In this document: positions 5,732 through 50,385 of the stretch, piece after piece | Layout of the letters: each line of letters begins with the position of its first letter | Numbering within the stretch: position 1 is the stretch's first letter | Source: Rhodocyclaceae bacterium | Lineage (GTDB): Bacteria; Pseudomonadota; Gammaproteobacteria; Burkholderiales; Rhodocyclaceae | Reading direction: 5' to 3' | Length of the DNA stretch: 50,524 nucleotides | NCBI GenBank assembly: GCA_013426785.1 | Contig: JACDZI010000016.1 | Span: 1 to 50,524 of the forward strand | The notes under the pieces: generated by a model | Told to the model about the DNA's origin: nothing | The model's input: only the letters and a program-made list of their open reading frames with translations | Database searches by the model: none | Translations under genes and position numbers: made by a program

Positions 5732-6613
5732 ATGAAAGCTTTCTCGTTACTCGTGGCTGTTCTTGCCCTCAGCTTCACCTTGACGACCGGTGATGCACTG
5801 GCCGCCAAGCGTCTTGGCGGCGGCAGTTCCATCGGCATGCAACGCCAGATGACCGCTCCCCCGGCCAAGGCGCCCGCGGCTGCTCCGGCGCCTGCCCCGT
5901 CGCAAGCCGCGCCGGCCGGAGCGGCAGCCGCCAAACCTGCAGCCGCTGCTCCCGGTCGCTCCTGGATGGGCCCGATCGCTGGCCTGGCTGCCGGACTCGG
6001 TCTTGCCGCCCTGGCTTCGCACTTCGGTTTCGGCGAGGAACTGGCCTCGTTCATGATGATGGCCCTGCTGGCCTTCGTGGTAATCGCTGCCGTCGGGTAT
6101 TTCATGCGCAAGCGCGCTGGTTCGCAACAGCCTGCTCTGGCTGGGGTGCAGGGCATGCAGTATTCCTCCGAGCGCATGACGCCGGCCAGCCGCGACCTTG
6201 AAAAAGTCGGCGTTGGCGGGACGGCATTGAATACTGCCAAGATTCCCGCCGAGTTCGATGTGGCCGGGTTTGTGCGCAATGCCAAAGTGCATTTCATTCG
6301 TCTACAGGCCGCCAACGATGCCCGTAATCTCGACGATATCCGTGAATTCACCACGCCTGAAATGTTCGCCGAAGTCAAGATGAACTTCAGCGAGCGCGGC
6401 GAAGCGGCGCAGACAACCGATGTACTGAATATCGATGCCGATGTGCTGGAGGTGGTTGAGGAAGACTCCCGTTATGTGGTCAGCGTGCGCTTTACCGGCC
6501 AGGTGTGCGAGGATAACGGCCCGGCCGAGACGGTCGACGAGATCTGGCACCTGGTCAAGCCGCGTGTCGGCAAGGGCGGCTGGCAGCTCGCGGGGATTCA
6601 GCAGTTGCAGTAA
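5732..6613 (+). CDS. Tim44-like domain protein with repeat-derived insert
   Basis: ATG 5732 follows AGGAGA at 5721-5726. Residues 1-24 form a signal peptide ending DALA-AK, followed by an Ala/Pro-rich linker. There are one or two membrane segments around residues 84-130 and a C-terminal Tim44-like domain (about 165-293) ending WHLVKPRVGKGGWQLAGIQQ. Such proteins are widespread in Betaproteobacteria and presumed membrane-associated; their exact role is not established. Residues 157-165 (KVGVGGTAL region) are encoded by a copy of the dispersed 24-bp repeat, located in the linker between membrane segment and Tim44 domain, where an insertion would be tolerated. Confidence 0.88.
   Translation: MKAFSLLVAVLALSFTLTTGDALAAKRLGGGSSIGMQRQMTAPPAKAPAAAPAPAPSQAAPAGAAAAKPAAAAPGRSWMGPIAGLAAGLGLAALASHFGFGEELASFMMMALLAFVVIAAVGYFMRKRAGSQQPALAGVQGMQYSSERMTPASRDLEKVGVGGTALNTAKIPAEFDVAGFVRNAKVHFIRLQAANDARNLDDIREFTTPEMFAEVKMNFSERGEAAQTTDVLNIDADVLEVVEEDSRYVVSVRFTGQVCEDNGPAETVDEIWHLVKPRVGKGGWQLAGIQQLQ
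6202..6225 (+). repeat. Dispersed 24-bp repeat, copy 1 (in Tim44-like gene)
   Basis: It differs from the consensus (AAAAGTCGG, then CGCTGGCGG, then GACGGC) only in one base (GCGTTGG for GCGCTGG). It is in the sense direction and in frame, encoding KVGVGGTA. Confidence 0.85.
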
Positions 6614-6636
6614 GCGGCTAAGCTGAACCAAGAGCG

Positions 6637-7089
6637 ATGAAGCGACTTCACATGCTGCTGGGGGTGCTTGCCCTGGCGGGTTTGACCGGCTGCGGCGGCG
6701 AGGTGGAGGACGCTCGTCCCGGCCAGCCGGTCAAGACCCGCCAGCTCGCCTTCAAGGAGATGCTGAAAGTATTCGAACCGATGGGGACCATGCTGCGTAC
6801 CCAAAAGTACGAACCGGAGAAATTCGCCGGCCTGGCCGCCCAGTTGATGACGAAACGGGATGCGCCCTGGCCCCATTTCGGCGCCGGCACGAACTACCCG
6901 CCTACAAAAGCCAAGGAAGGGGTCTGGAGCCAAGCCGATCAGTTTGAGCGTGAGAGGCAGGGTTTCATGATTGCAACGGATGAACTGTTAGTCGCGGCGC
7001 AGACGAAACAACTGGCGGATGCGGAGAAAGCCTACTTCAAGGCCTACGACACCTGCCAGTCCTGCCACAAACGCTTCAAGGAAAAGTAG
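6637..7089 (+). CDS. Cytochrome c' (class II) family lipoprotein
   Basis: The 150-residue precursor has a lipoprotein signal with lipobox LTGC at residues 16-19, so the mature protein should be lipid-anchored. The haem motif CQSCH lies at the extreme C-terminus (CQSCHKRFKEK), as in class II cytochromes c'. The body is helical. Likely a small electron carrier or NO/CO-binding haem protein in the periplasm; the substrate cannot be told. It starts 23 bases after the Tim44-like gene. Its stop codon TAG (7087-7089) is formed by a base change inside a copy of the dispersed repeat, so the repeat defines the protein's end. Confidence 0.85.
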   Translation: MKRLHMLLGVLALAGLTGCGGEVEDARPGQPVKTRQLAFKEMLKVFEPMGTMLRTQKYEPEKFAGLAAQLMTKRDAPWPHFGAGTNYPPTKAKEGVWSQADQFERERQGFMIATDELLVAAQTKQLADAEKAYFKAYDTCQSCHKRFKEK

Positions 7090-7105
7090 GCACTGGCGGG
7101 ACGGC
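7082..7105 (+). repeat. Dispersed 24-bp repeat, copy 2 (contains the cytochrome stop codon)
   Basis: It matches the consensus except GTAGGCACTGG for GTCGGCGCTGG. The C-to-A change creates the in-frame TAG that ends the cytochrome gene. Confidence 0.8.
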
Positions 7106-7123
7106 ATGCCATTTCCCTGTCGG

Positions 7124-8742
<1,619 letters not shown>

Positions 8743-8746
<4 letters not shown>

Positions 8747-10791
8747 ACCGTCCGGTCCAGCCAAGCTTGCGACTGTGCCAGACGTTGCAATCGTTCATGC
8801 GCCAGATCGAAACGGAATTCTTCCAGCAACCGGCGGACATCGGCAATTTCGTTGGCAACGGTTGAGCCGGCAACGATGTCGACCAATGTTCCGATATGGT
8901 CGAGCGCATCGAACTTGTTATGCGCCATCAGTGGCAGTATCTGTCCGACCAAGGCAGAGACTTGCGAAATATCGAGCTGCTGGGCCGGTGCCGGTTCAGG
9001 TTGGGTGGCGGTTGTAACGGGAGCCGGCTTCATCCACTGGGCCATCATACGGGCGAGTTGGTCGAAAACGATCGGTTTGGCCATGAAGCCATCCATCCCG
9101 CAGTTATTGCAGTGCTTGCGATTTTCCTCGAAGGCATCGGCCGAGATGGCGATGATGGGTCGCCGAGGCTGTCCCTGCTCTTTCTCCCACTGGCGGATTT
9201 GCTCGGCGGCGGCATAGCCGTCCATGACTGGCATTTGCAGGTCCATCAGGATCAGGTCGGCCGCGAGGCCACCCAGGATGGCGTTTACGGCTTCTTGGCC
9301 ATTGTTCAAGATGGTGCTGGTCAGCCCCAAGGAGTTGAGTAGGGCGCGGAGCACTTGCTGATTGGTTGGGTTGTCTTCGACCAACAGTACGTGGCCGCAG
9401 AGCTGTGGGAGTGCCTCGATTCGCAATTGCGGGGGGGGCGATGTACGCGCGCCAAGCCGGCTGTCACTGCCCTCGGCGACGATATCCGCCCGGATGTGGA
9501 ACCAGAAACGGGAACCCTCGCCGGGGATGCTATCGACACCCACATCGCCGCCCATTATCCGCGCCAGGCTGCGCACGATCGACAGTCCCAGTCCAGTCCC
9601 GCCGAACTGGCGCGTCGTCGAGCTGTCGGCCTGCGAAAACGGCTGGAAAAGGAAAGACAATTTGTCCTGCGCTATGCCGATGCCGGAGTCGGCAACGGCG
9701 AACTCGAGCACGGCGGTTTGACCCTCCCGTTCGCATTCGCGCGCGGTGATCGTGACCCGCCCTTGCGGGGTGAACTTGATGGCATTGCCGATCAGGTTGG
9801 CGAGCATCTGGCGCAATCGGTGCGAATCGCCCAGATAACGCTGAGTGGGACCGTCCCAGAGGGATTCGATGCGCAGTCCCTTGCTTCCGGCTGTTTCGGA
9901 GAACAATGCCTGTGTTTCGTGAAGAATCTGTGCCGGGTCTACGAAGCCGCTTTCGAGTTCCAGCTTGCCGGCTTCGACCTTGCTGAGATCGAGGATGTCG
10001 TTGAGCAGAGTGAGCAGCGTTTGGCCGGAATTGAGGATGGTGCGCGCGTAATCGCATCGTTCGCCATCAGACAGGCTGGGTGACAATAGCAGCTGAGCCA
10101 TGCCGAGGATGCCGTTCATCGGCGTGCGTATTTCATGGCTCATGGTGGCGAGGAACTGGCTCTTCGCTACATTGGCGGATTCGGCGGCAATTTTGGCGAC
10201 GTTCAGCGCCGTCTCCCTGGCGGCTAACTCCAGTTCAACGGATTTATCAACGAGGATCAGTAGCGTGCCATAGGCGTGTTGGGGTCCCTCATTCAGATGG
10301 ATAACGTGTACGTCATAGACTGTTTCGGCATCCTGAGTGCCATTTAATCTCAGCATCCCGGCGATTTGCGGGCCGCGCACGAGCGGATCGCGCAGCACGG
10401 CATGCAGCTTGTCACGGCTATCGGAAGCGAACAACTGGAAAGCCGAACGATGCTGTAAATAGGTATTCGAGCGGATGTCAAAAAGTTCGCGGGCCTGCTG
10501 GTTGGCTTCGCTGATGAAGCCACGGGCATCGACGAGGATGCCTGGTAGGGGCAGGAACTCGAACAGGTTGCGGTATTTCTCCAGACCCAGGACGATCTTC
10601 GCTTGGGCATTGCCCAATTCCTGGTTCTGGATTTCCAGTTCCGTGTGGTAGATGCGCAGTTCTTCGACCAGCCGATCGATATCACGCGACTCTGCGTCGC
10701 TATCGGGATGGCTAGCCTGATCCTGACTCTCGGCGATCGCCCGTTCGGCGCGTTCGCGCAGGTCTCCCAGATTGACTTGCCGTTCTTTCAT
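8743..10791 (-). CDS. PAS-containing hybrid sensor histidine kinase
   Basis: The 682-residue soluble protein has a charged N-terminal helix (residues 1-70), a PAS-like domain (about 75-185), HisKA with H219 in [12 protein letters not shown], a HATPase domain with ADSGIGIA and GGTGLGLS, a receiver domain with [13 protein letters not shown] around residue 525, and a roughly 100-residue helical C-terminal region. That region lacks a clear Hpt histidine motif. The start overlaps the CheB-CheR stop (ATGA), so the three signalling genes are translationally coupled. It probably cooperates with both neighbours; the signal is unknown. Confidence 0.9.
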
Positions 10792-14666: not shown

Positions 14667-15138
14667 ACGGTGTGTTCGGTGTGGCTCCGATAGCGGAAAG
14701 CCAGTCGGTCAGCCATGCTAGTGCGGCTTCAAGATGAGTGGCCGCAACCGGCGAAAGGGGTTCGCCGAGTTCGAAATGCTCCCCGCGAATGGCCAGGAGA
14801 TCGCAGGGCGGCGGGGCGTCGTCGTGCAGGTCGACATAGACCTGCAACACCGACTCGGGCGTGAGCGCATGGGTGCTGAAGCTGGCATCGCGGGCCGGGA
14901 TAAGTCGGCGGTGGCGGTACGGCGCCGAGGGATCATTGGCGTCGACGCTGGCGTCCACGAACAGCACCCGGTGGCGACCCAGCAGGTCGAGCGCATGCTC
15001 CACCTGCAACTGGAAATCGGTGAGGCACTCGATGCCGGGCAGGTTGAGCGCCTCGACGCGTTCGACGAACAGCGGGCCGAGCGCATCGTCGCCGCGGCTG
15101 GGATTGCCCCAGCCGAAAACCAGGATCGGCGCAGTCAA
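14665..15138 (-). CDS. hoxW: Hydrogenase maturation endopeptidase HoxW
   Basis: HoxW clips the C-terminal peptide of the HoxH precursor after nickel insertion. The protein (157 residues) has the N-terminal hallmark ILVFGWGNPSRGDDALGP with the nickel-sensing Asp, and a second acidic site in LFVDASVDAND, matching the M52 protease family. TTG 15138 overlaps the HoxH stop (TTGA) and gives the family's usual N-terminus. An ATG at 15177 would create a 43-base overlap and an extra 13 residues. It is last in hoxFUYHW and ends at the terminator shared with hup. Confidence 0.88.
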   Translation of the reverse strand: MTAPILVFGWGNPSRGDDALGPLFVERVEALNLPGIECLTDFQLQVEHALDLLGRHRVLFVDASVDANDPSAPYRHRRLIPARDASFSTHALTPESVLQVYVDLHDDAPPPCDLLAIRGEHFELGEPLSPVAATHLEAALAWLTDWLSAIGATPNTP

Positions 15139-20611: not shown

Positions 20612-21723
20612 AATTCATCGACGAGTTCCGTGACGGCAAGCTCGCCCAAGGCCTCGCGGCGGCCATCGCGGCGGCGGTGCAGCCGCAGCGGCACTATGCC
20701 TTCATGGAGTTCTGCGGTGGCCATACCCACGCCATCTCTCGTTATGGCGTAATCGACCTGCTGCCGGCGAATCTGCGCATGGTGCATGGGCCGGGCTGCC
20801 CGGTGTGCGTGCTGCCGATCGGCCGGGTGGACATGGCGATTGCGCTGGCGGTCGAGCAGGGCGTGATCCTGTGTAGCTACGGCGATTGCCTGCGCGTGCC
20901 GGCTTCCGATGGATTGTCGCTGCTCAAGGCCCGCAGCTTTTCAGGTGCGCGGGGTGGCGACGTGCGCATGGTCTATTCGGCGTCCGACGCGCTGCAGATC
21001 GCCCGTGATAATCCGGCGCGGCAGGTGGTGTTCTTCGCCATCGGCTTCGAGACCACCACGCCGCCGACCGCCGTGGTGATCCGTCAGGCGGCGGTCGGGG
21101 GACTGAGGAATTTCAGCGTACTCAACAACCATGTGCTTACACCCGCGGCGATCAGCGCCATCCTCGACGCCCCGGACGTACATCTGGATGGTTTCGTTGG
21201 CCCGGCGCACGTGTCCACCGTGATCGGCAGCGCGCCCTACGAGCCTTTCGCCGCGCGCTACCGCAAGCCGGTGGTGATCGCCGGTTTCGAGCCGCTCGAC
21301 GTCCTGCAGGCGATCCTCATGCTGGTGCGGCAGGTGAACGAGGGCCGCGCCGAGGTGGAGAACCAATTCACGCGCGCCGTGACGCGTGAAGGCAATCGCA
21401 AGGCGCAGGCACTGGTGGCGGATGTGTTCGCGTTGCGGCCGAGCTTCGAGTGGCGCGGACTGGGCAGCATCGAAAAGTCGGCGCTGGCGCTACGGCCTGA
21501 ATATGCGGAATTCGACGCCGAGCGTCGTTTCGATCTCGCCTACCGCACGGTGCCCGACCACCAGGCCTGCGAGTGCGGGGCGATCCTGCGCGGCGTCAAG
21601 GAACCCCGCGCTTGCAAGATTTTCGGCACGGTATGTACGCCGGAAACCCCGGTTGGTTCCTGCATGGTGTCGTCGGAAGGCGCCTGCGCGGCGCATTACA
21701 GCTACGGGCGATTCCGGGCGTAA
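20608..21723 (+). CDS. hypD: Hydrogenase maturation protein HypD
   Basis: TTG 20608 gives the family's N-terminus MKFIDEFRDG. The 371-residue protein has FMEFCGGHTHA, HGPGCPVCVLP, GFETTTPPTA and a C-terminal [4Fe-4S] region (ACECGAILRG and CKIFGTVCTPETPVGSC). HypD forms with HypC the scaffold on which the Fe(CN)2CO cofactor is assembled. At 21473-21496 the gene contains a 22-of-24 match to the dispersed repeat, but there it encodes a peptide (EKSALALRPEY) that looks native for HypD. hypE, the usual next gene, is absent; a minus-strand island follows. Confidence 0.95.
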   Translation: MKFIDEFRDGKLAQGLAAAIAAAVQPQRHYAFMEFCGGHTHAISRYGVIDLLPANLRMVHGPGCPVCVLPIGRVDMAIALAVEQGVILCSYGDCLRVPASDGLSLLKARSFSGARGGDVRMVYSASDALQIARDNPARQVVFFAIGFETTTPPTAVVIRQAAVGGLRNFSVLNNHVLTPAAISAILDAPDVHLDGFVGPAHVSTVIGSAPYEPFAARYRKPVVIAGFEPLDVLQAILMLVRQVNEGRAEVENQFTRAVTREGNRKAQALVADVFALRPSFEWRGLGSIEKSALALRPEYAEFDAERRFDLAYRTVPDHQACECGAILRGVKEPRACKIFGTVCTPETPVGSCMVSSEGACAAHYSYGRFRA

Positions 21724-21724
21724 C

Positions 21725-21748
21725 GCCGTCCCGCCAGCGCCGAGTTTT
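21725..21748 (-). repeat. Dispersed 24-bp repeat, copy 3 (between hypD and methylase stops)
   Basis: Minus-strand copy with ACTCGG in place of AGTCGG, otherwise consensus. Its first bases overlap the TAA stop of the methylase gene (21747-21749). It lies directly after the hypD TAA (21721-21723), so it fills nearly the whole convergent gap. Confidence 0.85.
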
Positions 21749-24700
21749 ACCCCAACCACCGCCCATCCTCCAACTGTCGCGCCCGGCCGAGGGTGGCGAG
21801 GGTGGCGAGCAGTTCGGGGAGTCTTGATTTCCATTTTCCCTTGCCGGTGAAGCGTGTTGCCAGTTCGGTTTCGGATTGCGGCTGCGCGGTGAGCGTGTTC
21901 GCCAGCGCGGCCATTTGTTCGGGGAGTGTTTGGGGCCAGGCTTGCTGGCCGGGCGGCTGAGGTCGGGTCGGCGCCGCCTCGTCAGGCTGCACATTCCTCG
22001 GCAGCGCCAACCGCTCCCCGCCGCCCTGCGGTTGTTGAAACTCCGGCCGCAGCCAGCGAATCTGGCCTTCTGCCTCCTCGGCTGCGCGTGCGGCGTTGAG
22101 CAGCACCAGTCGTTCGAGGATGTGTTCGTCGCTGGGATCGTCGCTCCAGCCGTAGGCGTCGCGCACGGCGGCGTCGAGGTCGTCGTGCAGGCTTTTCAGC
22201 ACCGCGACGAGGCCCTTGTCGTAAATCGCCTGTTCCTTCGCCGTCCTGCCGGAGCCGACTTTTTGCAGCACGTTGTAGAGGCCGGTCAGCGTCAGGTCGG
22301 CGTGTTGCGCCAGCACGCGCTTGCGGTGGGCGTCGAGTTGTTCCGCCAGGTCGCGGATGTGCGCCTGCTGTTCCGCAGTGGCGGCGGGGAAGGGAAATGC
22401 CTCGAATGAGCGCGATTTGACGTAAGTCGGATCGTTGCCAACGCCAAGCCAGCCTCCTGCGGCAGTTGCCCAGACGACATGTATGCGGCTGGAGAGAACG
22501 CCGAGTGCATAGGCATCGTCGAGGGCGATGGCGATCAGCTTGCTGTCCGGCAAGATGCTGGCGTTGAGGAACTGAAAGACGCGGTGCTTGGCGGTTTTGA
22601 CGGTGGCGATGTAGCGCGGCAAGCCGGCGAGTGCAGGCCGTAAGTCTTCACGCGGTCGGCCAAATATCCACCAGTTATCACGTGGTTTCGGATCACGGTT
22701 TTTATCGCGCTCTGGTTTCACCGTATCGAGCACACGCTGATATATGGCCGGCCAGCGGCGGCGCACGGTATCTGCGTCGTGGCCGAACAGGTCGATGACG
22801 CTGACGCCGCGCGGCCGGTCGGTGAGATCGCGGCCATTGCGGTAGTCGAAGATCGGTGCGTCGGTTTCGAGTTTTGCCCGCTCGTCAGGAGTGACGATGA
22901 ATCCCGCACCGTTTAATTTGACACCTTCGTGAGAAAGCATTTCGTTTGCGTGCAAGGCGTGCGCGGCGGCGACATTTGCGCCGATGGTGAGGTCAGCGTG
23001 AATCAGGCCGCGCTGTTCGGCGAGTTCCACTTCCAGCCCTTCGCCCTTGCCCTCGCGCTCGGCGACGACGTTGAGCAGACGGCCTTCGCCGCCGCCGGGC
23101 GCGACGACGGTCATGGCGATGCGCACTGCCGCGCCATCGGCGCTATCGACCCACGGGTGGTCGGGAATGGCGAAGTCGAGATGCACGCTCGCGTCGAGTG
23201 CGCCTTGCACGACGCGGCGGTTGAAGGTCTGGCGCAGGCTGTTGGTGGTGATGAAGCCGAAGCGCGCCAGCTTGCCCTGTGCGACCAGTTGCGCGGCGTG
23301 GTGCCACCAGAACATGACGAAATCGGCCGAGTCGGGCACCTGCTGCCAGGCCGCCCGCAGCGCTTCGACATATTCGTCACCCAGCGCGGCACGCATGCTC
23401 GCCGCGCCGATGAAGGGCGGATTGCCGACGACGACATCGGCTGCCGGCCACTCGGCTTGTCTTCCATCGGCGAGCACCGCGTCGCGGCATTCGATGTTGC
23501 GGAAATCCTTGAGGATCGGACTCGGCGGCAGGCCGCTGCCCTGCGTGCGGAAGTGCCATTGCAGGTAGCCGATCCACAGCACCAGTTCGGCAATGGCGGC
23601 GGCACGCGGGTTGAGTTCGAGGCCGAGGAACTGGTGCGGGTCGACCGTCAGCCCGGCCGCTTCGAGCAGCGATTGCGTCTCGCCGAGGTCGTGAATCTGG
23701 TTGAGCACTTCGCCTTCGAGGCGCTTCAAATGTTCCAGCGCGACGTAGAGGAAGTTGCCGCTGCCGCAGGCCGGGTCGAGCACGCGCAGATGGCAGAGGC
23801 GATGGTGGAAATGCCGCAGTTCGGCCACCGCTTCCTTGTGCTTGCCCTCGTTGGCGAGCAGCACCGCCGCGCCCTGCACGTAGGCCCATGCCTGCCGCAG
23901 CGGTTCGACCACGGTGGGCAACACCAGCCGCTCGACATAGGCGCGCGGCGTGTAGTGCGCGCCGAGGGCGTGGCGCTCCTGCTCGTCCAGCGCGCGTTCG
24001 AGCAGGGTGCCAAAGATGGCCGGCTCGACCTGCGTCCAGTCGGCTTTCGAGGCTTCGAGCAGCAGGCCGATTTGCGCCTTGGTGAGCGGCAGCACCTCGG
24101 GGTGCTTGAACAGCTTGCCGTTGAAGCGCGGCAGGGTCTGGCGCAGCACCACGGAAAAGCCGCCGCTGTCCATCTCCTGCCACAGGGCATGAACCAAGGG
24201 CACGAACTGCGTGGGATTGTCGGCGAGGCTGTCCAGCAGCTCGCTGAAGCTACCCTTGGGAATCAGTTGCACGTCCTCGGCGAACATGCTGAACAGGCAG
24301 CGGGTGAGGAAGCCGGCGACGGTTTCCGGATGATGCTTGCCCGCTTCGAGCGACCGGGCGAGTTCGGCCAGATGCGCGGCGATCTCGCGGGTGACCTTGG
24401 CGGACTGGCGCGTGGGATCGAGCGCCAGCGGGTCCAGCCACAGGGCGCGCAGGCGGGCGCGGATTTTCTCGTCGCGCAGGTCGGCCAGCCGCAGCCGGTG
24501 CGAGCGCGGATCGGGGAAGGGCACGTAGGTGCCGCCGCTGCGCGTGAATTCGGCATACAGCTCGATGACGTTGCCGACATCGACGACGATCACGAAGGGC
24601 GGCCGGCCTTCCTCGGCCGGCAGGGCGCGGGCGTAGCCTTCGGCTTGCGAGCGGGCGCGCAGCAGGGCATCGTCGAAGGTTTTTGCCGTCCCGCCAGCGC

Positions 24701-24974
24701 CGACTTTGCCAGCGTCGTCCCGCTGGCTTCGTTTGATTTTTTTGGCTTCGAGGACGAAGCAGCCGCGCCGGTAGCAGTCGATACGACCCGCGCTGGCGCC
24801 GCCATCCCCATGTCGAAACGTGATCGGCCGCTCGAACATGTAGTCGTGCTGATGCGTGGGCGGCTCGACCTCCAGCAACTGGCACAGGTCGATGACGAAG
24901 CTCTGCGCGGTGGCGAGTTCGGAGGCGCTAACGCCCTGCCAGCGGGCGATGAAGGATTCGATGGGGTTGCTCAT
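21747..24974 (-). CDS. Type IIG-like restriction-methyltransferase fusion
   Basis: This 1075-residue protein combines an N-terminal PD-(D/E)xK-like nuclease site (D66, then E76 and K78 in CFVLEAKK), a helical connector, and an N6-adenine methyltransferase domain (SAM motif LDPACGSGNFLY at 399-410, catalytic NPPF at 518-521). A long C-terminal region probably recognises the target. Layout and length resemble MmeI-like or other single-chain type II enzymes that modify and cut DNA; BREX PglX is a more distant alternative. Two repeat copies encode KVGAGGTA (about 90-97) and KVGSGRTA (about 904-911) without breaking the frame. It splits the hyp genes together with three other minus-strand loci. 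Confidence 0.85.
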   Translation of the reverse strand: MSNPIESFIARWQGVSASELATAQSFVIDLCQLLEVEPPTHQHDYMFERPITFRHGDGGASAGRIDCYRRGCFVLEAKKIKRSQRDDAGKVGAGGTAKTFDDALLRARSQAEGYARALPAEEGRPPFVIVVDVGNVIELYAEFTRSGGTYVPFPDPRSHRLRLADLRDEKIRARLRALWLDPLALDPTRQSAKVTREIAAHLAELARSLEAGKHHPETVAGFLTRCLFSMFAEDVQLIPKGSFSELLDSLADNPTQFVPLVHALWQEMDSGGFSVVLRQTLPRFNGKLFKHPEVLPLTKAQIGLLLEASKADWTQVEPAIFGTLLERALDEQERHALGAHYTPRAYVERLVLPTVVEPLRQAWAYVQGAAVLLANEGKHKEAVAELRHFHHRLCHLRVLDPACGSGNFLYVALEHLKRLEGEVLNQIHDLGETQSLLEAAGLTVDPHQFLGLELNPRAAAIAELVLWIGYLQWHFRTQGSGLPPSPILKDFRNIECRDAVLADGRQAEWPAADVVVGNPPFIGAASMRAALGDEYVEALRAAWQQVPDSADFVMFWWHHAAQLVAQGKLARFGFITTNSLRQTFNRRVVQGALDASVHLDFAIPDHPWVDSADGAAVRIAMTVVAPGGGEGRLLNVVAEREGKGEGLEVELAEQRGLIHADLTIGANVAAAHALHANEMLSHEGVKLNGAGFIVTPDERAKLETDAPIFDYRNGRDLTDRPRGVSVIDLFGHDADTVRRRWPAIYQRVLDTVKPERDKNRDPKPRDNWWIFGRPREDLRPALAGLPRYIATVKTAKHRVFQFLNASILPDSKLIAIALDDAYALGVLSSRIHVVWATAAGGWLGVGNDPTYVKSRSFEAFPFPAATAEQQAHIRDLAEQLDAHRKRVLAQHADLTLTGLYNVLQKVGSGRTAKEQAIYDKGLVAVLKSLHDDLDAAVRDAYGWSDDPSDEHILERLVLLNAARAAEEAEGQIRWLRPEFQQPQGGGERLALPRNVQPDEAAPTRPQPPGQQAWPQTLPEQMAALANTLTAQPQSETELATRFTGKGKWKSRLPELLATLATLGRARQLEDGRWLG
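22240..22263 (-). repeat. Dispersed 24-bp repeat, copy 4 (in methylase gene, C-terminal)
   Basis: Minus-strand variant with GGCTCCGGCAGGAC in the centre, the same subtype as copy 12 at 45636. It is in frame with the gene and encodes KVGSGRTA. Confidence 0.85.
24685..24708 (-). repeat. Dispersed 24-bp repeat, copy 5 (in methylase gene, N-terminal)
   Basis: Minus-strand copy identical to the consensus except for the first base. It is in frame, encoding KVGAGGTA just after the nuclease-like motif, in a region expected to be a surface loop. Confidence 0.88.
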
Positions 24975-25731: not shown

Positions 25732-25755
25732 ACCGTCCCGCCAGCGCCGAGTTTC
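25732..25755 (-). repeat. Dispersed 24-bp repeat, copy 6 (at stop of membrane protein gene)
   Basis: Minus-strand copy with ACTCGG and a final GGTG variant. Its beginning overlaps the TGA stop (25754-25756) of the membrane protein gene, and the rest separates that gene from the antitoxin. Confidence 0.8.
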
Positions 25756-26322: not shown

Positions 26323-26346
26323 GCCGTCTTGCCAGCGCCGACTTTT
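26323..26346 (-). repeat. Dispersed 24-bp repeat, copy 7 (at stop of WYL gene)
   Basis: Minus-strand copy with GGCAAGAC for GGCGGGAC. Its first A is the last base of the TGA stop (26346-26348) of the WYL gene. Confidence 0.85.
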
Positions 26347-28533: not shown

Positions 28534-30748
28534 AGCGGCGCGGATCAGGGTCACGGGAGTCGTCCAGGGCGTCGGCTTTCGCCCTTTCGTCTGGCGCCTC
28601 GCGCAGGAACTGCAACTCGCCGGCTGGGTCAGGAACGATGCGGCCGGCGTCGAGATTCACGCCGAAGGTGCGGGACTTGACCGCTTTGTCGACCGTCTGA
28701 AAACCGAAGCTCCGCCGCTGGCGCGGGTAGATGCGGTGACGGTCGCCGCCGCCGGTCAGGCAGGCCATGCCGGTTTCACGATCTGCGACAGCGCGGGCGG
28801 CAGGGTCGGCACGGCCATCGGCCATGACACCGCGCCCTGCGCCGCTTGCCTCGCCGAATTGTTCGACCCGAAAAACCGACGCTGGCGACACGGCTTCATC
28901 ACCTGTACGCATTGCGGGCCGCGCTATACCCTAACGCGCCACCTGCCCTACGACCGGCCGCAGACCAGCCTGGCCCCATTTCCGCTCTGTCCGGACTGCG
29001 CGCGCGAATACGCCGATCCGGCCGACCGGCGTTTTCATGCCGAGACGACCTGCTGCCCGAACTGTGGCCCGCAGTTGTCCCTGCTCAACGGCACGGGCAA
29101 TGTGCTCGCCGGCGAGCCGATTGCCGCGACGCTGGCCTTGCTTCAGGCTGGCCGCATCGTTGCCATCAAGGGGTTGGGGGGCTTCCACCTCGCCTGCGAT
29201 GCGCGCAATGCGCAGGCGGTGACGGAACTGCGCCAGCGTAAGCAGCGCGAGGAAAAGCCGTTTGCGGTGATGGTGGCCGACACGGAGGCTGCCGCCCGCC
29301 ATGCAAAAGTCGGCGCTGGCGAGACGGCGTTGCTGGAAAGCCCGGAACGACCCATCGTGCTGCTGGAGCAGCTTATGGAGTTGCCAGGCGTCGCGCCAGC
29401 ATTATCTGAAATCGGCCTGATGCTGCCGGCGACGCCGATCCAGCAGATGCTGTTCCACGACGCGCCGGAACTGGCGCTGGTGATGACCAGCGCCAACCCG
29501 CATGGCGAACCGCTGGTGATCGGCAACACCGAGGCGCTTGAACGGCTGGCGGGCATCGCGGCTGCCTTCCTGCTGCACGACCGCGACATCGTCGTGCGCT
29601 GCGACGACAGCGTGCGACGCGGCACCCAATTCATCCGCCGGGCGCGTGGTTACGTGCCGTGCGCGATCAAGCTGCCGGGCGCGGGTCCGTCGATATTGGC
29701 CGTCGGCGGCTGGTTCAAGAACACGGTGTGCGTGATGCGGGATGACGAGGCTTTCGTTTCGCAGCACATCGGCGACCTCGACAATGCTGCGGCCTGCGGT
29801 TTCTTCGAGGAAACTGTCGCTCACCTGCTGCACATCCTCGATGTAGAGCCCGAATGCGTCGCCCACGACCTGCACCCTGATTTCCACTCGTCGCGCTTCG
29901 CTGCCGGACTGGGGATTCCAGCCGTTGGGGTGCAGCACCACCACGCCCACATTGCCGCCGTCTGCGCCGAGCATGGCATCGAGGCGCCCGTGCTGGGTCT
30001 GGCCCTCGATGGCGTCGGATTGGGCAACGACGGCAGCGCCTGGGGCGGCGAGTTGCTACGGGTCGACGGGGCGCAGTGCGAACGCCTCGGCCATCTGGCG
30101 CCGCTGGGATTGCCCGGCGGCGACGTGGCGGCGCGCGAACCCTGGCGCATGGCAGCGGCGGCCCTGCATGTGCTGGGCCGGGGCGACGAGATTGCCCAGC
30201 GCTTCGCCGCCGAACCGGCCGCGGCGACCGTGGCGACCATGCTGGCGCGTGGCCTGAATTGTCCACCGACTTCGAGCGCCGGCCGGCTGTTCGATGCGGC
30301 GGCAGGGCTGCTCGACGTCCGTCGCCGGGCGAACTTCGAGGGGCAGGCGGCAATGCTGCTGGAAGGTCTGGCGGCGCGGCATGGTCCCCTCGCGCCGCTG
30401 GCAGGTGGCTGGCAAATCGTGGATGATCAACTTGATTTGCGCCCCTTGCTGGCGGCGCTGGTCGAGGCGCCGGATCGCCAGGTTGCCGCAGCGTTGTTCC
30501 ATGCCACGCTGACGGCGGCGCTGGTCGACTGGGTGGTGCGGGCGGCGCAGCGTTGCGGCATCACCACGGTGGCTGTGGCGGGCGGCTGCCTGCTCAACCG
30601 ACTGCTGGCGACCGGGTTGCGCGAGGCCCTGCCGCGCCATGGCCTGCGTTTCGTTACGGCGCAGCGCCTGCCACCGAACGATGGTGGCTTGTCGCTCGGC
30701 CAGGCCTGGGTGGCGCGGCTTACTCGAACCAGGCCAGCTTGTCCTTGA
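28526..30748 (+). CDS. hypF: Carbamoyltransferase HypF
   Basis: HypF makes the cyanide precursor by carbamoylating HypE with carbamoyl phosphate. The product of about 740 residues has an acylphosphatase domain ([19 protein letters not shown]), two zinc fingers ([34 protein letters not shown]), a YrdC-like domain and a Kae1-like domain with [17 protein letters not shown] 28526 overlaps the hypB stop; GTG 28511 is an alternative. A repeat copy encodes KVGAGETA at about residues 261-268. The 3' end overlaps the convergent SUMT gene by 29 bases. Confidence 0.94.
29305..29328 (+). repeat. Dispersed 24-bp repeat, copy 8 (in hypF)
   Basis: One mismatch to the consensus (GCGAGAC for GCGGGAC). It is in the sense direction and in frame, encoding KVGAGETA between the first part of the YrdC-like domain and [12 protein letters not shown]. 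Confidence 0.8.
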
Positions 30749-31499: not shown

Positions 31500-32869
31500 G
31501 GTCTCGGTCGGGAGCGGGCGAACGCCAGGAAACGGGCCGGCCAGTCGCAGCCGGCGACGCCGCGCAGGTGCGTGTAGGACGCTAGCAGGTTGTGCAGCAC
31601 GATACCATCGTGCCGACTGTCGATGCCGTGGCCGCGCTTCACGATGTAGGCATAGCGGGTGTCGGCGGGCAGGCCGCGAATGTCGGAGTAGTGGAATTCG
31701 TGGGCGTGGATGGGCTGTGAAAACTCGGTGCTGGCAGGACGGCACCAAGGATGTTCTTCTGTGGCGTCGAGGATGACGTAGCCGCGTCCGACCGGCTTGG
31801 GCTGCATGACGATCTCGCCCGGAATGGCACCAACCATGGGACAAGTCTTATCGCCCCAGGTGATCGACTGGGCGAGGTACATCAGCCCGCCGCATTCGGC
31901 GTAGGTCGGCAGGCCGGCTCCGACCTTGCCGCGGATGTCGGCCCGCAGGGCGGTATTGGCGGATAGCTCGTCGAGGAAGGATTCGGGGAAACCGCCGCCG
32001 ATGAACAGCGCATCGCAGGTGGGCAGGGCGGCATCGTGCAGGGTATCGAAGGGCACCAGTTTGGCACCGGCGGCAGCCAGGGCATCGAGATCGTCGCTGT
32101 AGTAGAAGCCGAAGGCGGCATCGCGAGCAATGGCGATGCGTAGGCGCGGCCCGGCGACCTCTGCTGGAAAAGTCGGCTCTGGCAGCACGGTGTCCGTGGC
32201 GGTGACGGCGAGCAGGCGGTCGAGGTCGACCTGGCGTGCGACCTGCGTGGCGATGCCGGCGATCAGTTGTTCGGCATGGGCGACCTCATTCGCCGGCATC
32301 AGGCCGAGGTGGCGTTCGACCAGCGCGAGTTGCGCATCCTCCTGCACGGCGCCGAGCACCGGCACGTCGGTGTAGTGCTCGATCACGGCGCGCAGCTTGG
32401 CCTCGTGGCGGCTGCCCCCGAGTCGGTTGAGGATCACCCCGGCGATGCGGATGTCGCGCTCGAAGGCCTGATAACCGAGGATCAGCGGCGCGATGCCGCG
32501 CGTCATGCCGCGCGCGTCGAGCACCAGGATGACGGGCAGAGAAAGCAGGCGGGCGAGGGCAGCATTGCTGTTGGCGCCGTCGAGCGCCAACCCGTCGTAG
32601 AGCCCCTTGTTACCCTCGACCAAGCAGACATCCGCGTCATGGCCGTACGCGAACTGGGCGCGGAGCTCGTCGTGCGGCGACAGGAAAAAGTCGAGGTTGC
32701 GGCAGGACCGGCCGGCCGCGGCGGAGAGCCAGAGCGGATCAATGTAGTCTGGCCCCTTCTTGAAGGGTTGCACCGTCCGGCCGCGCGCCCGCAAGGCGGC
32801 GACCAGGCCGATGCTCAGGGTGGTCTTGCCGGAGGATTTGTGCGCGGCTGAAACGAGAAAACGATGCAT
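31496..32869 (-). CDS. dsrN: Sirohaem amidase-like protein DsrN
   Basis: The 457-residue protein is homologous to cobyrinate a,c-diamide synthase (CobB/CbiA). The N-terminal dethiobiotin-synthetase-like ATPase domain has [10 protein letters not shown] and [11 protein letters not shown]; the C-terminal class I amidotransferase domain has its Cys in [11 protein letters not shown] and a late HEFHYS motif. Placed after dsrP as in Allochromatium, it is assigned to DsrN, which amidates sirohaem for DsrAB. Two antisense repeat copies lie in the gene, encoding LPEPTF (inter-domain) and CRPASTEFS (just before HEFHYS). The frame is intact. Confidence 0.92.
31720..31743 (+). repeat. Dispersed 24-bp repeat, copy 9 (antisense in dsrN)
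   Basis: Variant with ACTCGGTGCTGGCAGGAC in the centre. It runs against dsrN, whose frame it enters as CRPASTEF. Confidence 0.75.
32168..32191 (+). repeat. Dispersed 24-bp repeat, copy 10 (antisense in dsrN)
   Basis: The most diverged accepted copy: GGCTCTGGCAGCACGGT in place of the consensus second half. It is read by dsrN as LPEPTF, between the ATPase and amidotransferase domains. Confidence 0.65.
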
Positions 32870-39580: not shown

Positions 39581-39604
39581 AAAAGTCGGCGCTGGCGGGA
39601 CGGC
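39581..39604 (+). repeat. Dispersed 24-bp repeat, copy 11 (dsrC-dsrM gap)
   Basis: Perfect consensus copy, plus strand, antisense to the dsr transcript. Its 3' half forms the left arm of the hairpin at 39595-39620. Confidence 0.9.
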
Positions 39605-44079: not shown

Positions 44080-44081
44080 CC

Positions 44082-45261: not shown

Positions 45262-45297
45262 TTCATTCTTCAACCCCAAAAAACAAAGGAGGAGTCC

Positions 45298-45636
45298 ATG
45301 AGCATAGTCATCAACGGTATCGAGAAGGAAGTGGACGATTACGGCTACCTGCTGGAGCCAGACTTGAGCGAAGATGCCGTAACGGCTTTTGCTGCGGCAG
45401 AGGGCCTGGAACTGACCGAACAGCACTGGAAGATCATCAACTACCTGCGCCAGAAATTCCAGGAGGAAGGACATACCCCCAATGCGCGCAATCTAGTGAA
45501 GGGCTTGCAGGACGAGGCCGACATGCCCGAGGCCGACAACAAGCTGATGTTCGACCTCTTCCCGGATGGCGGTGCCGCCAAGCAGGGTTGCCGGATGGCC
45601 GGCCTGCCCCAGCCCAAAGGCAAGGGTGGATATTGA
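45298..45636 (+). CDS. DsrC/TusE-family paralogue with a single C-terminal Cys
   Basis: The 112-residue protein shares the DsrC core (NGIEKEVDDYGYL, TEQHWKIINYLRQKF) and C98 in KQGCRMAGLPQP, but the C-terminal arm ends KGKGGY, without the penultimate Cys needed to form the DsrC trisulfide. It therefore resembles TusE-type sulfur acceptors or regulatory DsrC-like proteins. AAAGGAGGAG precedes ATG 45298. Its TGA stop begins a copy of the dispersed repeat. Confidence 0.92.
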   Translation: MSIVINGIEKEVDDYGYLLEPDLSEDAVTAFAAAEGLELTEQHWKIINYLRQKFQEEGHTPNARNLVKGLQDEADMPEADNKLMFDLFPDGGAAKQGCRMAGLPQPKGKGGY

Positions 45637-45659
45637 AAAGTCGGCTCCGGCAGGACGGC
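45636..45659 (+). repeat. Dispersed 24-bp repeat, copy 12 (at stop of DsrC-like gene)
   Basis: Variant with GGCTCCGGCAGGAC, like copy 4. Its first A is the last base of the TGA stop. CAGGAC (45651-45656) in the repeat pairs with GTCCTG (45665-45670) directly before the next ATG. Confidence 0.85.
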
Positions 45660-45670
45660 ATTGAGTCCTG
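45651..45670 (+). promoter_or_regulatory. Short hairpin abutting the next start codon
   Basis: The arms CAGGAC and GTCCTG have an 8-base loop. The right arm ends at the base before ATG 45671 and no Shine-Dalgarno is visible, so in mRNA the hairpin could hinder initiation or couple it to translation of the DsrC-like gene. The left arm is part of the dispersed repeat. Confidence 0.45.
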
Positions 45671-46279: not shown

Positions 46280-46281
46280 AC

Positions 46282-47160: not shown

Positions 47161-47177
47161 GCGCGCACCGATATAAT
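47147..47177 (+). promoter_or_regulatory. Possible sigma70 promoter of the HDOD gene
   Basis: A perfect TATAAT stands at 47172-47177, 31 bases before the HDOD start. A weak TTGCGG lies 19 bases upstream, which is longer than the ideal 17. The 47-base gap between the oxygenase and HDOD genes supports a new transcription unit here. Confidence 0.4.
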
Positions 47178-47207
47178 TGGCCCTCGCCCATCATCCGTTG
47201 AGCCAAG

Positions 47208-48077
47208 ATGCCGCAACTCTCACTGGAGCTTGAACGCAAGCTGACTACCGCCGTCGAGCGGATGCCCGCCTTCCCCAAGAGCGTGCAGACCATCCTCGAA
47301 ATGACGCGCAACATCAACTGCCTGCCAAAGGATCTGGTCGCCGTGATCGAAAAGGATCCGGTGATGACGGTGAAGATCCTGCGCGTCATCAACTCGGCCT
47401 ATTACGGCCTGCCCAACAAGATCACCTCGGTCGGCCAGTCGGTCGTCTATCTTGGCATCAACACCATCAAGAACCTGGCACTTTCCTTTGCCGCCGTCGG
47501 TATCCTGCCGCGCTTCAACACTACTGGCTTCGACATCCAGCGCTACCTGCTCCACTCGATTTCGGTGGCGATCATCGCCCGCCTGCTGTGCGAAAAGCAC
47601 GCCCGGGCCGAGGCCGATCCGGCCGATTGCTACATTGCAGGTTTGCTGCACGATTTCGGCAAGGTGGTCTTTGCTCAGTTCATGTCGGGCGAGTTCATGC
47701 ATGCCCTGGCGCACACCGTCGACTTTGGCAAGCCTCTGTACGTGGCCGAGGCCGAGGTGATCGGCGCCGACCACGCTTTTGTCGGCGCCCTGCTGGCTAA
47801 GAAATGGCAATTCGCCGAACCGCTGGTCAATTGCATTCGCGATCACCACAACGACGAAGCCGAACCCAGTGCCATGCTGGATTGCCTGCGCATGGCCGAT
47901 GCCATCTGCCGTAAATTCACTATTGGCGAGTCCGGCAACCTCTGGCGCGAAGAGGAGTTGCTGCTCCTGCCGAGGCGCTTTGGCGAGGACGTCGATGCAG
48001 TGATCGCTGCCCTGGGCGATCTGCAGAAGATTGTCGATGATGCCCAGTCTTTCGCGCAAATCGGCACGGGGAGATAG
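47208..48077 (+). CDS. HDOD domain protein
   Basis: The 289-residue protein has an N-terminal HDOD domain (residues about 15-215) with LPAFP-like MPAFPKSVQTILEM, INSAYYGLPNKITSVGQSVV and LLHDFGKVVFAQF. The C-terminal part contains IRDHHNDE. HDOD proteins are HD-superfamily relatives, usually signalling or post-transcriptional regulators without phosphodiesterase activity. The HD pair seems to survive here (GLLHDFG), so activity cannot be excluded. Followed after 8 bases by the beta-lactamase-fold gene. Confidence 0.92.
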   Translation: MPQLSLELERKLTTAVERMPAFPKSVQTILEMTRNINCLPKDLVAVIEKDPVMTVKILRVINSAYYGLPNKITSVGQSVVYLGINTIKNLALSFAAVGILPRFNTTGFDIQRYLLHSISVAIIARLLCEKHARAEADPADCYIAGLLHDFGKVVFAQFMSGEFMHALAHTVDFGKPLYVAEAEVIGADHAFVGALLAKKWQFAEPLVNCIRDHHNDEAEPSAMLDCLRMADAICRKFTIGESGNLWREEELLLLPRRFGEDVDAVIAALGDLQKIVDDAQSFAQIGTGR

Positions 48078-48085
48078 GTGTCCTC

Positions 48086-48967
48086 ATGAAAATCAGACTA
48101 TGGGGTGTGCGTGGATCGATCCCCTCGCCGGGACCGCATACCGTACGTTATGGTGGCAATACCACCTGCATCGAAGTGCGCAGCGACGACGATAGCCTGA
48201 TCATCCTTGATGCCGGAACCGGTATCTTTCCGCTGGCCCAGTCGCTGCTCGCCCGCCTGCCGGTGACGGCTAACGTGTTCATCAGTCATACGCACTGGGA
48301 CCATATCCAGGGTTTGCCCTTTTTCGTTCCCCTCTACATTCCGGGTAACCGGGTATGCATCCACGGCGCCTACGATATCGTCTCCATGCAGGGGATCGAG
48401 CAGATCATGAACGTGCAGTTGCAGTACAGCTATTTTCCTATCCGCGAGGCGGAACTGAAGGCTGGCATCGAGTATCAGACGCTGACGGTCGGCGAACCGG
48501 TGGCGGTCGGCGATGCGACCGTGACGCCGGTATTGCTGAATCATCCCGTTACCGATCTCGGCTATCGGGTGGCTTGCAACGGCAAGGCGGTTTTCTTCAC
48601 CGGCGACCACGAACCCTGGGGCAACATCTATCCGCCAGACGATCCCGAGCATGTGACTTATCAGGCGATGGTGGACCAGCGCCAGGCGGAACTCGATGCA
48701 ACCATCGGCCCGGTCGATGTACTGATCTGCGATACCGCCTACACGCTGGCCGAATATCCGGCCAAGATCGGTTGGGGGCACGGCACTTACGATCAGGCGA
48801 TTGCCATGGCAAAGCGCATCGGTGCCAAACAGTTGATCTGCACCCATCATGAACCGACGCGCAGCGACGATGATCTGGAGAAGGTCTTCGCCGCAGCGCT
48901 GGAGCGCAATCCAGTGCCAGGTTGCGAAGTGATGCTGGCCCGTGAGGGGTTGGAAATCGAGCTGTAG
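48086..48967 (+). CDS. Metallo-beta-lactamase fold hydrolase
   Basis: The 293-residue protein has the metal motif HxHxDH at H68, H70, D72 and H73 (SHTHWDHIQG), with additional ligands in FTGDHEPWG and CTHHEPTRSDD. The N-terminus MKIRLWGVRGSIPSPG is typical of a subgroup often found with cyclic-nucleotide or HDOD signalling genes and related to phosphodiesterases of the PhnP/RNase Z type. The substrate is unknown. Likely co-transcribed with the HDOD gene. Confidence 0.9.
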   Translation: MKIRLWGVRGSIPSPGPHTVRYGGNTTCIEVRSDDDSLIILDAGTGIFPLAQSLLARLPVTANVFISHTHWDHIQGLPFFVPLYIPGNRVCIHGAYDIVSMQGIEQIMNVQLQYSYFPIREAELKAGIEYQTLTVGEPVAVGDATVTPVLLNHPVTDLGYRVACNGKAVFFTGDHEPWGNIYPPDDPEHVTYQAMVDQRQAELDATIGPVDVLICDTAYTLAEYPAKIGWGHGTYDQAIAMAKRIGAKQLICTHHEPTRSDDDLEKVFAAALERNPVPGCEVMLAREGLEIEL

Positions 48968-48969
48968 AT

Positions 48970-50385
48970 TCAGTCTGAAACGAGGCCGGCCAGTTCGGTC
49001 TGCGCCAGTTCCAGTTGCTTGTCCAGTCGTTGCGCCATTTCTTCAAGCAAGTCGCGTCCCTGTTTGGTGGCAATGCGTGCGGCCGCGAAGAGTTCGTAGA
49101 GTTTCGAGCCATAGAGCCGGTCGAGTTCGGTCACGATGGCGGCAATGCGCTGGCGCACCTTCTCCACCTGCTTTTCGAGGGTTTCGCTTCCGGTCGTGGC
49201 GGCACGCAAGGGCATGGCAGCGCTGGTCTGTCCTTCCAGCCACAGGGCCAGCACTTCGTCGAGCGTGCCGGCATCGCCGGCGCGATAGGCGCGGTTGGCT
49301 TCGCTCATCAGATGGGTCCGCCAGGCCCGGTCGGCCTCGTCGCGGGCACGGTCGGGATGGATTTTCTGGGCGAGCTGGCGATAGCGCTTCTTGAGTTCCT
49401 TGCTCGGTGCGAAATGCGTTTCGCCTCGTTCTACCTTCGCCTGCCCGGCGGAATATTCCCGCTGCGACTGCTCGGCGCGCGCTTCCGCCTGCCGGGCGGT
49501 TTCACCGAGATCGGTGTTGTCGGGGGCCCGTTGTATCCTGAGTCTGGCGAGTTCGGCATGAAGGTGATCGAGCTCGGCCATGCGCCCGGCCACCATGCGG
49601 TGGTAGCGTTCGCTGAAGGCGGCGATTTCAGCCTGTGCCGTGGCCAGTTCCAGTTCCATTTCGGCCAGTTCCTGCCCCAGCAGTTCCAGTTCGTTGCGCT
49701 GGCGGGTGGCTTCGTCCATGATCGTCAGGGCGGTGGTGCCGGAGATCGCGGTTTCTGCCAGCATCAGCGTATGGCGTGTGCCTGACCAGGGAGTGCGCAA
49801 GTTGGCGGGCAAGGCGCCGGACTGGATCAGCATCACCCAGTCGGTCGGTGCGGCAAGCTGCTCGGCAACCGGCCAAGGACCGATGCGTACCGGGAAGAGG
49901 CGGGCAACGCCGTCCGGTGGCGCTTCGCGGTCGAGGCCGCGTGCGCACCAGGCTAGGCAATCGCGCCACAAGGCGGCTTCCGTCTGCAGGTGTAGGCGCA
50001 TCGTCGTCCATGCCGGGCCTTCTGTGTCCTCGGCTGCTCGCGTCAGGCGGCTTTTCAGCAGGGAAAGCGTCGCCCGCAGGGCGATGCGGCCGGCGAAGGG
50101 TGAAGCAGGTTGCACCAGGCACAACGGGCGCAGGTGCAGATCCAGCGCATTGGACAGTTCGGGCAGCAGGGCATCGTCGGCCGTAACTATCCAGAGTTGT
50201 CGCTCGTGCGCCAGGGTTTCGGCGGCCAGTGCGGCCAAGGCGGGAATGAGTGTGGCGGGATCGGCTGGCGCACCGATTTCGCAAAAAGTCGGTGCTGGCG
50301 GGACGGCGTAACAAACAGCCTGGCCGACGCCAAAATGCTTCAGCCAGGCTTCGATCGTGCTGGCAATGTCCGGCCCGGAATCCAT
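48970..50385 (-). CDS. Large coiled-coil protein with C-terminal J domain
   Basis: The 471-residue protein has a poorly recognisable N-terminal half, a coiled coil at about residues 235-340 (QELAEMELELATAQAEI), and a J-domain-like segment with intact HPD in RYRQLAQKIHPDRARDEAD (about 350-400). A helical tail follows. It is likely a DnaK co-chaperone with an unknown client. ATG 50385 is preferred over 50520. An antisense repeat copy encodes AVPPAPTF at about residues 27-34. It converges on the beta-lactamase-fold gene with a 2-base gap. Confidence 0.8.
   Translation of the reverse strand: MDSGPDIASTIEAWLKHFGVGQAVCYAVPPAPTFCEIGAPADPATLIPALAALAAETLAHERQLWIVTADDALLPELSNALDLHLRPLCLVQPASPFAGRIALRATLSLLKSRLTRAAEDTEGPAWTTMRLHLQTEAALWRDCLAWCARGLDREAPPDGVARLFPVRIGPWPVAEQLAAPTDWVMLIQSGALPANLRTPWSGTRHTLMLAETAISGTTALTIMDEATRQRNELELLGQELAEMELELATAQAEIAAFSERYHRMVAGRMAELDHLHAELARLRIQRAPDNTDLGETARQAEARAEQSQREYSAGQAKVERGETHFAPSKELKKRYRQLAQKIHPDRARDEADRAWRTHLMSEANRAYRAGDAGTLDEVLALWLEGQTSAAMPLRAATTGSETLEKQVEKVRQRIAAIVTELDRLYGSKLYELFAAARIATKQGRDLLEEMAQRLDKQLELAQTELAGLVSD
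50284..50307 (+). repeat. Dispersed 24-bp repeat, copy 13 (antisense in J-domain gene)
   Basis: One mismatch to the consensus (GGTGCTGG for GGCGCTGG). It is antisense to the J-domain gene and read there as AVPPAPTF. Confidence 0.85.

What the first reader, a model, noticed from the sequence alone, without database searches (positions are those of the whole stretch)
6202..50307. A 24-bp dispersed repeat family with at least 13 copies in 50 kb
The sequence AAAAGTCGG + CGCTGGCGG + GACGGC recurs at 6202, 7082, 21725, 22240, 24685, 25732, 26323, 29305, 31720, 32168, 39581, 45636 and 50284, on both strands, with only a few substitutions. It is not in tandem, is not a CRISPR and has no visible transposase. 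Seven copies are inside genes and six at gene ends or between genes. This density and the tolerance inside genes suggest a mobile or amplified micro-element comparable in habit to Rickettsia palindromic elements, but not palindromic. I do not recognise it.
Basis: seen in the sequence. Interest (0 to 1): 0.82.

Follow-up and report, generated by a model that had tools for sequence, protein, structure and literature searches.

The report
Genome-wide 24-base DNA tag in Rhodocyclaceae
This bacterium's chromosome carries hundreds of scattered copies of one 24-base sequence that arose by changing existing DNA in place, and it looks like a self-recognition tag for DNA uptake of the kind known from two other bacterial families.

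Summary
Copies within 3 mismatches number 706 in the 3.24 Mb genome (reversed-pattern control 0). Seventeen of 18 same-genus genomes carry 181-703. Family-wide, 37 of 297 genomes, in 6 of 68 genera, carry 43-585 at up to 2 mismatches; the other 260 carry 0-15.

It does not behave like a mobile micro-element. The motif stops at 24 bp with no conserved flank. Orthologues without it usually align over the site with no matching gap, so copies arise by substitution in place. No replication-strand bias was seen. Genus g85 has a one-letter "dialect".

These are marks of DNA uptake sequences, described from Neisseriaceae and Pasteurellaceae. ComEC (with three copies), DprA and a ComP-family minor pilin are present. 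Against: no classical ComEA in 20 motif-rich genomes tested, no inverted-pair enrichment, no receptor identified, and depletion in foreign DNA unclear. Uptake itself is untested. Best reading: a DUS-like tag in a further family (0.6).

The parts
6202..6225 (+). motif copy, 1 mismatch, inside a Tim44-domain gene, same strand (reads KVGVGGTA)
7082..7105 (+). motif copy, 2 mismatches, over the 3' end of a cytochrome c' gene
14900..14923 (+). motif copy, 3 mismatches, antisense inside a predicted gene (not in the finding's list)
21473..21496 (+). motif copy, 2 mismatches, inside a HypD-family gene (not in the finding's list)
21725..21748 (-). motif copy, 1 mismatch, over the 3' end of an MmeI-like gene, between convergent genes
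22240..22263 (-). motif copy, 3 mismatches, inside the MmeI-like gene
24685..24708 (-). motif copy, 1 mismatch, inside the MmeI-like gene
25732..25755 (-). motif copy, 3 mismatches, over a predicted gene's 3' end
26323..26346 (-). motif copy, 2 mismatches, at the stop codon of a WYL-domain gene
29305..29328 (+). motif copy, 1 mismatch, inside a HypF-family gene
31720..31743 (+). motif copy, 3 mismatches, antisense inside a cobB-like gene (name inferred from Pfam domains); 9 of 26 orthologues, this one included, have a copy at the aligned site, three more a few columns away
32168..32191 (+). motif copy, 4 mismatches, antisense inside the cobB-like gene; within 4 mismatches only in this genome among 26 orthologues
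39581..39604 (+). motif copy, exact consensus, intergenic; with its flank it forms a strong hairpin
45636..45659 (+). motif copy, 3 mismatches, over a predicted gene's 3' end
50284..50307 (+). motif copy, 1 mismatch, antisense inside a gene with a DnaJ match below the Pfam cut-off (reads AVPPAPTF)

Best explanation
The 24-mer is a genome-wide self-tag of the DNA-uptake-sequence kind. A surface receptor, most likely a type IV minor pilin, would prefer DNA carrying AAAAGTCGRCGCTGGCGNNACGGC. The DNA would enter by a type IV pilus and ComEC route and recombine. Because tagged alleles are taken up more often, point mutations that create or restore the tag spread by molecular drive wherever the gene product tolerates it. 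Shown here: copy number, 24-bp boundary, origin by substitution in place, DNA-level retention, uneven use of reading frames, no strand polarity in the sample, lineage dialects, and the presence of comEC, dprA and a minor-pilin cluster. Inferred: the receptor, the uptake step and the drive.
For: 706 copies, control 0. In 442 kb, 27, 40, 20, 18, 5, 5 and 6 copies at 0-6 mismatches, while the two control patterns give none below 7; no flank conservation beyond one purine on each side. ComEC site 1 is kept with 1-3 mismatches in 11 of 13 sequences while neighbouring codons vary; site 2 is present in 5 and replaced without a gap at the motif in 7. None of 7 sites aligned to motif-free G005 lacks 8 residues. 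At the 72 fully aligned sites, identical residues keep identical codons in 308/354 cases inside against 12355/22201 outside (named loci), and 37/53 against 2047/3348 (G017) (sums over the classes). Of 61 intragenic copies, 39 lie in the two frames reading KVGAGGTA or AVPPAPTF and 4 in the two frames of bulky residues. Leading 30, lagging 29 in 400 kb of single-contig G017. In G102, position 9 is A in 23 of 23, in this genome G in 58 of 61; the 15-mer with A has 131 copies in G102 and at most 11 in each of 149 others. ComEC and DprA over their NCBI cut-offs, a ComP_DUS-family pilin over its Pfam cut-off, PilV, PilW and PilY1 matches. Point-mutation origin and dialects are the published behaviour of uptake sequences (PMC1939737, PMC3630211: passages seen).
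Against: No classical ComEA: PF12836 gives nothing in this genome, TIGR00426 only E 0.025 and 0.88, and 0 of 20 motif-rich genomes pass its cut-off against 18 of 41 others. ComP_DUS does not discriminate: 89 of 101 genomes have a match, motif-free G005 included, while motif-rich drafts G012 and G015 have none. Inverted matches near extragenic copies are not enriched (5 of 47 against 18 of 235 control), unlike Neisseria. The ribosomal-protein operon, core DNA, has no copy, and it makes up much of the low-GC DNA, so the GC trend does not prove depletion in foreign DNA. One relative misses 10 residues at a motif site in a variable loop. The motif is longer than the uptake sequences I know of (recalled).
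Confidence: 0.6

Rival explanations
1. The motif is a binding site for an intracellular protein (nucleoid organiser, segregation or repair factor) kept by selection on the chromosome, not by uptake.
For: Genome-wide and lineage-limited, with DNA-level retention. It would not need ComEA, which was not found.
Against: No strand polarity in the G017 sample, which argues against Chi- or KOPS-like polar use. Copies occur in 19 of 20 evenly spaced stretches of that chromosome, so it is not a macrodomain mark. Hundreds of long copies at a cost in protein sequence, with one-letter dialects, are unusual for such sites (general knowledge).
Confidence: 0.22
2. An unknown copy-and-rewrite process (short gene conversion from donor copies) writes the 24 bases over resident DNA: a replicating micro-element without insertion.
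For: Substitution in place and the sharp boundary also fit overwriting.
Against: Seven of 72 fully aligned sites have 4-6 mismatches in the relative, and some resident codons are kept (ComEC site 2); both fit stepwise point mutation better.
Confidence: 0.1
3. An inserted mobile micro-element (like Rickettsia palindromic elements or REP/RAYT).
For: High copy number, both strands, inside genes. One Y1 transposase gene exists in the genome.
Against: Empty sites: 0 of 7 against G005 lack 8 residues, and 23 against motif-bearing relatives align in full. The motif alone does not fold better than shuffles. No motif in the Y1 locus. No flanking module.
Confidence: 0.02
4. A conserved protein motif or codon-bias effect.
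For: Two frames dominate.
Against: Copies occur in six frames, in unrelated proteins and between genes. Codon-order shuffles give 0 and synonymous shuffles 4-10 against 61.
Confidence: 0.01

Closest known systems
DNA uptake sequence (DUS) of Neisseriaceae
   Same: Many copies, inside and between genes, dialects, point-mutation origin (PMC3630211 and PMC1939737, passages seen)
   Different: 24 bp against 10-12 bp (length recalled); Rhodocyclaceae; no inverted-pair enrichment; no ComEA found; receptor unknown
Uptake signal sequence (USS) of Pasteurellaceae
   Same: A core with a less strict extension; the 17-mer extended USS begins AAAGTGCGG, this motif AAAAGTCGG (PMC12616744, passages seen); the likeness may be chance
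   Different: GC-rich distal part instead of an AT-rich one; different class of bacteria
HIP1 and other highly iterated chromosomal motifs (recalled, no call)
   Same: Genome-wide, intragenic, lineage-limited
   Different: HIP1 is an 8-bp palindrome (recalled); this motif is long and not palindromic
REP/RAYT and Rickettsia palindromic elements (recalled, no call)
   Same: Many dispersed copies; RPE also inside genes
   Different: Those are palindromic and inserted; this one tested as neither

Membership tests
DNA uptake sequence (DUS/USS) | Short motif in hundreds of copies on both strands | tested here: met
   706 copies, 363/343, control 0
DNA uptake sequence (DUS/USS) | Arises by point mutation in place, not insertion | tested here: met
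   1 of 97 rows with 8 or more residues missing in the relative, many rows being occupied in both
DNA uptake sequence (DUS/USS) | Lineage-specific dialects | tested here: met
   G102 against G000 at position 9
DNA uptake sequence (DUS/USS) | Permissive sites preferred | tested here: met
   61 of 110 copies inside genes although 84% of the sample is coding; exact copies 18 of 49 outside genes, 9 of 61 inside; gene calls are crude
DNA uptake sequence (DUS/USS) | Depleted in foreign DNA | tested here: inconclusive
   a polysaccharide island has none, but neither has the ribosomal-protein operon; GC trend confounded
DNA uptake sequence (DUS/USS) | Inverted pairs at transcription terminators (Neisseria) | tested here: not met
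   5 of 47 against 18 of 235 control
DNA uptake sequence (DUS/USS) | Transformation machinery: type IV pilus, ComEC, DprA, ComEA | tested here: inconclusive
   ComEC, DprA and minor pilins present; ComEA not found
DNA uptake sequence (DUS/USS) | Cognate ComP-type receptor | tested here: inconclusive
   one ComP_DUS-family pilin, 36.8 bits, but the family is in 89 of 101 genomes
DNA uptake sequence (DUS/USS) | Tagged DNA is taken up preferentially | not testable with these tools
   needs an uptake or transformation assay
Chi / KOPS-type polar motif | Leading-strand bias | tested here: not met
   leading 30, lagging 29 in 400 kb of G017
REP/RAYT | Palindromic, extragenic, linked to a Y1 transposase | tested here: not met
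   motif alone folds no better than shuffles, 61 of 110 in genes, none in the Y1 locus
Rickettsia palindromic element | Insertion of a palindrome into genes | tested here: not met

The most novel reading that the evidence does not exclude
A further, independent self-DNA recognition system for natural transformation, in Rhodocyclaceae: a bipartite tag (AAAAGTCGRCGCTGG plus ACGGC, about two helical turns long) with evolving dialects, read by a receptor that works without classical ComEA.
Probability: 0.45. Interest if true: 0.88.

Novelty: new variant of a known kind. Interest (0 to 1): 0.8.

Why it matters
The papers I saw describe uptake sequences from two families. A long, dialect-bearing tag in a further family of environmental bacteria would allow tests of how such tags start, spread and change, would predict natural competence in these bacteria, and would offer new DNA-receptor pairs for reading out recognition. 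If the tag is instead an intracellular site, it is still an unexplained genome-wide motif paid for in protein sequence.

Tried and rejected
Insertion element: rejected on aligned empty sites. Hairpin or terminator role: the exact motif alone folds no better than shuffles on either strand; of four copies folded with 20-base flanks, the one at 39581 forms a strong hairpin (z -3.43, and -1.92 on the other strand) and three do not (z -1.03, -0.25, -1.16); inverted matches are not enriched in the sample. RNA family: no Rfam match in the window. RAYT: one gene, no motif in its locus. Polar motif: no bias in the sample; the list is capped at 100 places, all forward, so I do not lean on it. ComP_DUS as a marker of motif-rich genomes: fails. 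A different tag in motif-free G005: no strongly over-represented 10- or 12-mer in 292 kb or 11-mer in 666 kb. Viral contigs: 40 hold the exact 23-mer, out of about 2.9 million in the collection; some have several near copies, perhaps host flanks. Papers: 'DNA uptake sequence' with Rhodocyclales and 'uptake sequence' with Rhodocyclaceae gave 0 and 0, the motif letters 0; the listings (20 of 37 shown), 12, 31 and 48 name no such tag in Rhodocyclaceae in titles or abstract starts. Only open-licence PMC papers were searched. Limits: the gene caller is crude; one search repeats a few genes and covers 72 of the 90 rows against motif-bearing relatives (18 dropped for gaps or low identity); its 'both' class is selected for DNA likeness, so I quote sums over all its classes. 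The reversed-pattern control is 0 in the motif-rich genomes and 1 in each of three motif-poor ones.

Full report
What was checked. The listed repeats are in the window: 14 matches within 3 mismatches of AAAAGTCGGCGCTGGCGGGACGGC against none in 100 shuffles, and one more with 4. The genome in which the window lies holds 706 within 3 mismatches, 363 forward and 343 reverse, with 0 for the reversed pattern.

What it is made of. In 442 kb of this genome (window plus 20 stretches) the numbers at 0 to 6 mismatches are 27, 40, 20, 18, 5, 5 and 6; the two control patterns give none below 7. The 107 copies with full flanks show strong preference at 24 positions, mostly a purine on either side, and nothing beyond, so no larger element is seen. 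The exact motif does not fold on its own better than shuffles; one of four copies folded with flanks, 39581, forms a strong hairpin.

Where it sits. Of 110 copies within 4 mismatches, 61 are inside predicted genes, 10 overlap the 3' end of a gene on the same strand, and 39 are between genes, while 84% of the sample is called coding. Intragenic copies use all six frames but favour two: 25 read KVGAGGTA and 14 AVPPAPTF, against 2 and 2 for the two frames of bulky residues. Extragenic copies are more often exact (18 of 49 against 9 of 61). Density rises with GC, from 0.60 per 10 kb below 0.55 (20 windows of 2.5 kb) to 4.69 at 0.64 or more (29 windows). Two 20-kb stretches have no copy: one holds polysaccharide genes, the other the ribosomal-protein operon (ten of their proteins named). 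Both are low in GC, so the trend mixes possible foreign DNA with constrained core DNA, and depletion in foreign DNA is not established.

Substitution, not insertion. ComEC from this genome carries three copies. In a codon alignment of 13 sequences, the first copy is present in 11 with 1-3 mismatches while neighbouring codons vary (of the other two, L090 does not cover it and L092 lacks it). The second is present in five (G000, L081, L086, L087, L091), and in seven others (L082-L085, L088, L089, L092) the same length holds other codons. The third lies in a loop of variable length. G005, placed in the same genus, has no copy within 4 mismatches in 666 kb, two at 5 and four at 6. Seven sites could be aligned to it: five ungapped, one with 3 residues missing, one with 7 extra, none with 8 missing. 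Against G017, 7 of 12 were ungapped with at most 4 residues missing; against the named loci, 37 of 78 were ungapped and one row missed 10 residues. Of these 90 rows against motif-bearing relatives, 72 cover the site in full: 42 have the copy (0-3 mismatches), 7 have 4-6 mismatches and 23 have 7 or more, that is, empty but not shorter. Rows repeat a few genes and are not independent. CobB-like orthologues from 26 genomes give a less clean picture: one site is private to this genome; the other lies in a loop of variable length, 9 carrying it in register.

Retention at DNA level. At those 72 sites, identical residues keep identical codons in 308 of 354 cases inside the site against 12355 of 22201 outside (named loci), and in 37 of 53 against 2047 of 3348 (G017) (sums over the classes). 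Where the copy is absent the figures are 50 of 76 and 4 of 14, near or below background.

No polarity. In single-contig genome G017 (2.737 Mb; 199 forward, 194 reverse) 20 even stretches hold 31 forward and 28 reverse copies. GC skew is positive in 9 of the first 10 stretches and negative in 9 of the last 10; counted by half, leading 30 and lagging 29.

Who has it. Seventeen of 18 same-genus genomes (181-703 copies), and three other family members among 100 relatives (438, 730, 611); of the remaining 39 family genomes 38 have 0-8 and one has 24, and 40 same-order genomes have 0-5. In a family-wide draw at up to 2 mismatches, 37 of 297 genomes, in genera g1, g2, g9, g38, g86 and g104, have 43-585, and 260 have 0-15; within those six genera G005 (0) and G293 (4) are the exceptions. 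Of 14 ComEC loci with named records, 12 are metagenome-assembled 'Rhodocyclaceae bacterium' records and hold 2-11 copies each; the other two (a Betaproteobacteria record and Microbulbifer) hold none. In single-contig genome G040 many of its few copies bunch in short stretches, which looks like imported DNA; not pursued.

Dialects. In 203 kb of G102 (genus g85) the consensus is AAAAGTCGACGCTGG, about four loose bases, then ACGGC; position 9 is A in 23 of 23, against G in 58 of 61 in this genome. The A form of the 15-mer has 131 copies in G102 and at most 11 in each of the other 149 genomes searched. G026 prefers T at position 10, where this genome has C in 94%.

Mechanism. Uptake sequences were argued to evolve by point mutation in existing sequence and molecular drive rather than by insertion (PMC1939737, passages), and dialects, permissive intragenic sites and inverted pairs at terminators are described for Neisseriaceae (PMC3630211, passages). 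Point-mutation origin, dialects and permissive placement are met here; inverted pairs are not enriched. This genome has ComEC and DprA over the NCBI cut-offs and a minor-pilin cluster with a ComP_DUS-family pilin over the Pfam cut-off. ComEA is not found, which is the strongest point against ordinary transformation; another periplasmic DNA-binding protein would be needed. The ComP_DUS family is too widespread to mark the receptor. I therefore say that it works like an uptake sequence (0.6) and do not file it as a proven member, since uptake cannot be tested here. The main rival is an intracellular binding site (0.22).

Noticed in passing
G000-G004, G006-G019, G026: No match over the cut-off to the ComEA model TIGR00426 in any of these 20 motif-rich genomes, though 18 of 41 other genomes have one; ComEC and DprA remain in this genome.
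   Followed up: partly
window 21725-24974: An MmeI-like restriction-modification gene, a type often gained horizontally (recalled), carries two motif copies inside and one over its 3' end.
   Followed up: no
L133 (G017, cobB-like orthologue): About 35 extra residues with an internal repeat follow the motif site of this orthologue.
   Followed up: no
L204, L205, L206 (G040), L207 (G113): Genomes with few copies have several bunched within 20-kb stretches, as if blocks of tagged DNA had been imported; in multi-contig genomes misbinning is possible.
   Followed up: no
L208-L247: 40 viral contigs hold the exact 23-mer, a few with up to five near copies; these could be prophages with host flanks.
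   Followed up: no
L040:17562-19895: The comEC gene itself carries three motif copies.
   Followed up: partly
L248-L267 (G102): The g85 dialect contains the palindrome GTCGAC, which the g1 consensus lacks.
   Followed up: no
L032:9321-10058: A pilin-like open frame has the residues AVPPAPTF, one reading of the motif, in its leader peptide.
   Followed up: no
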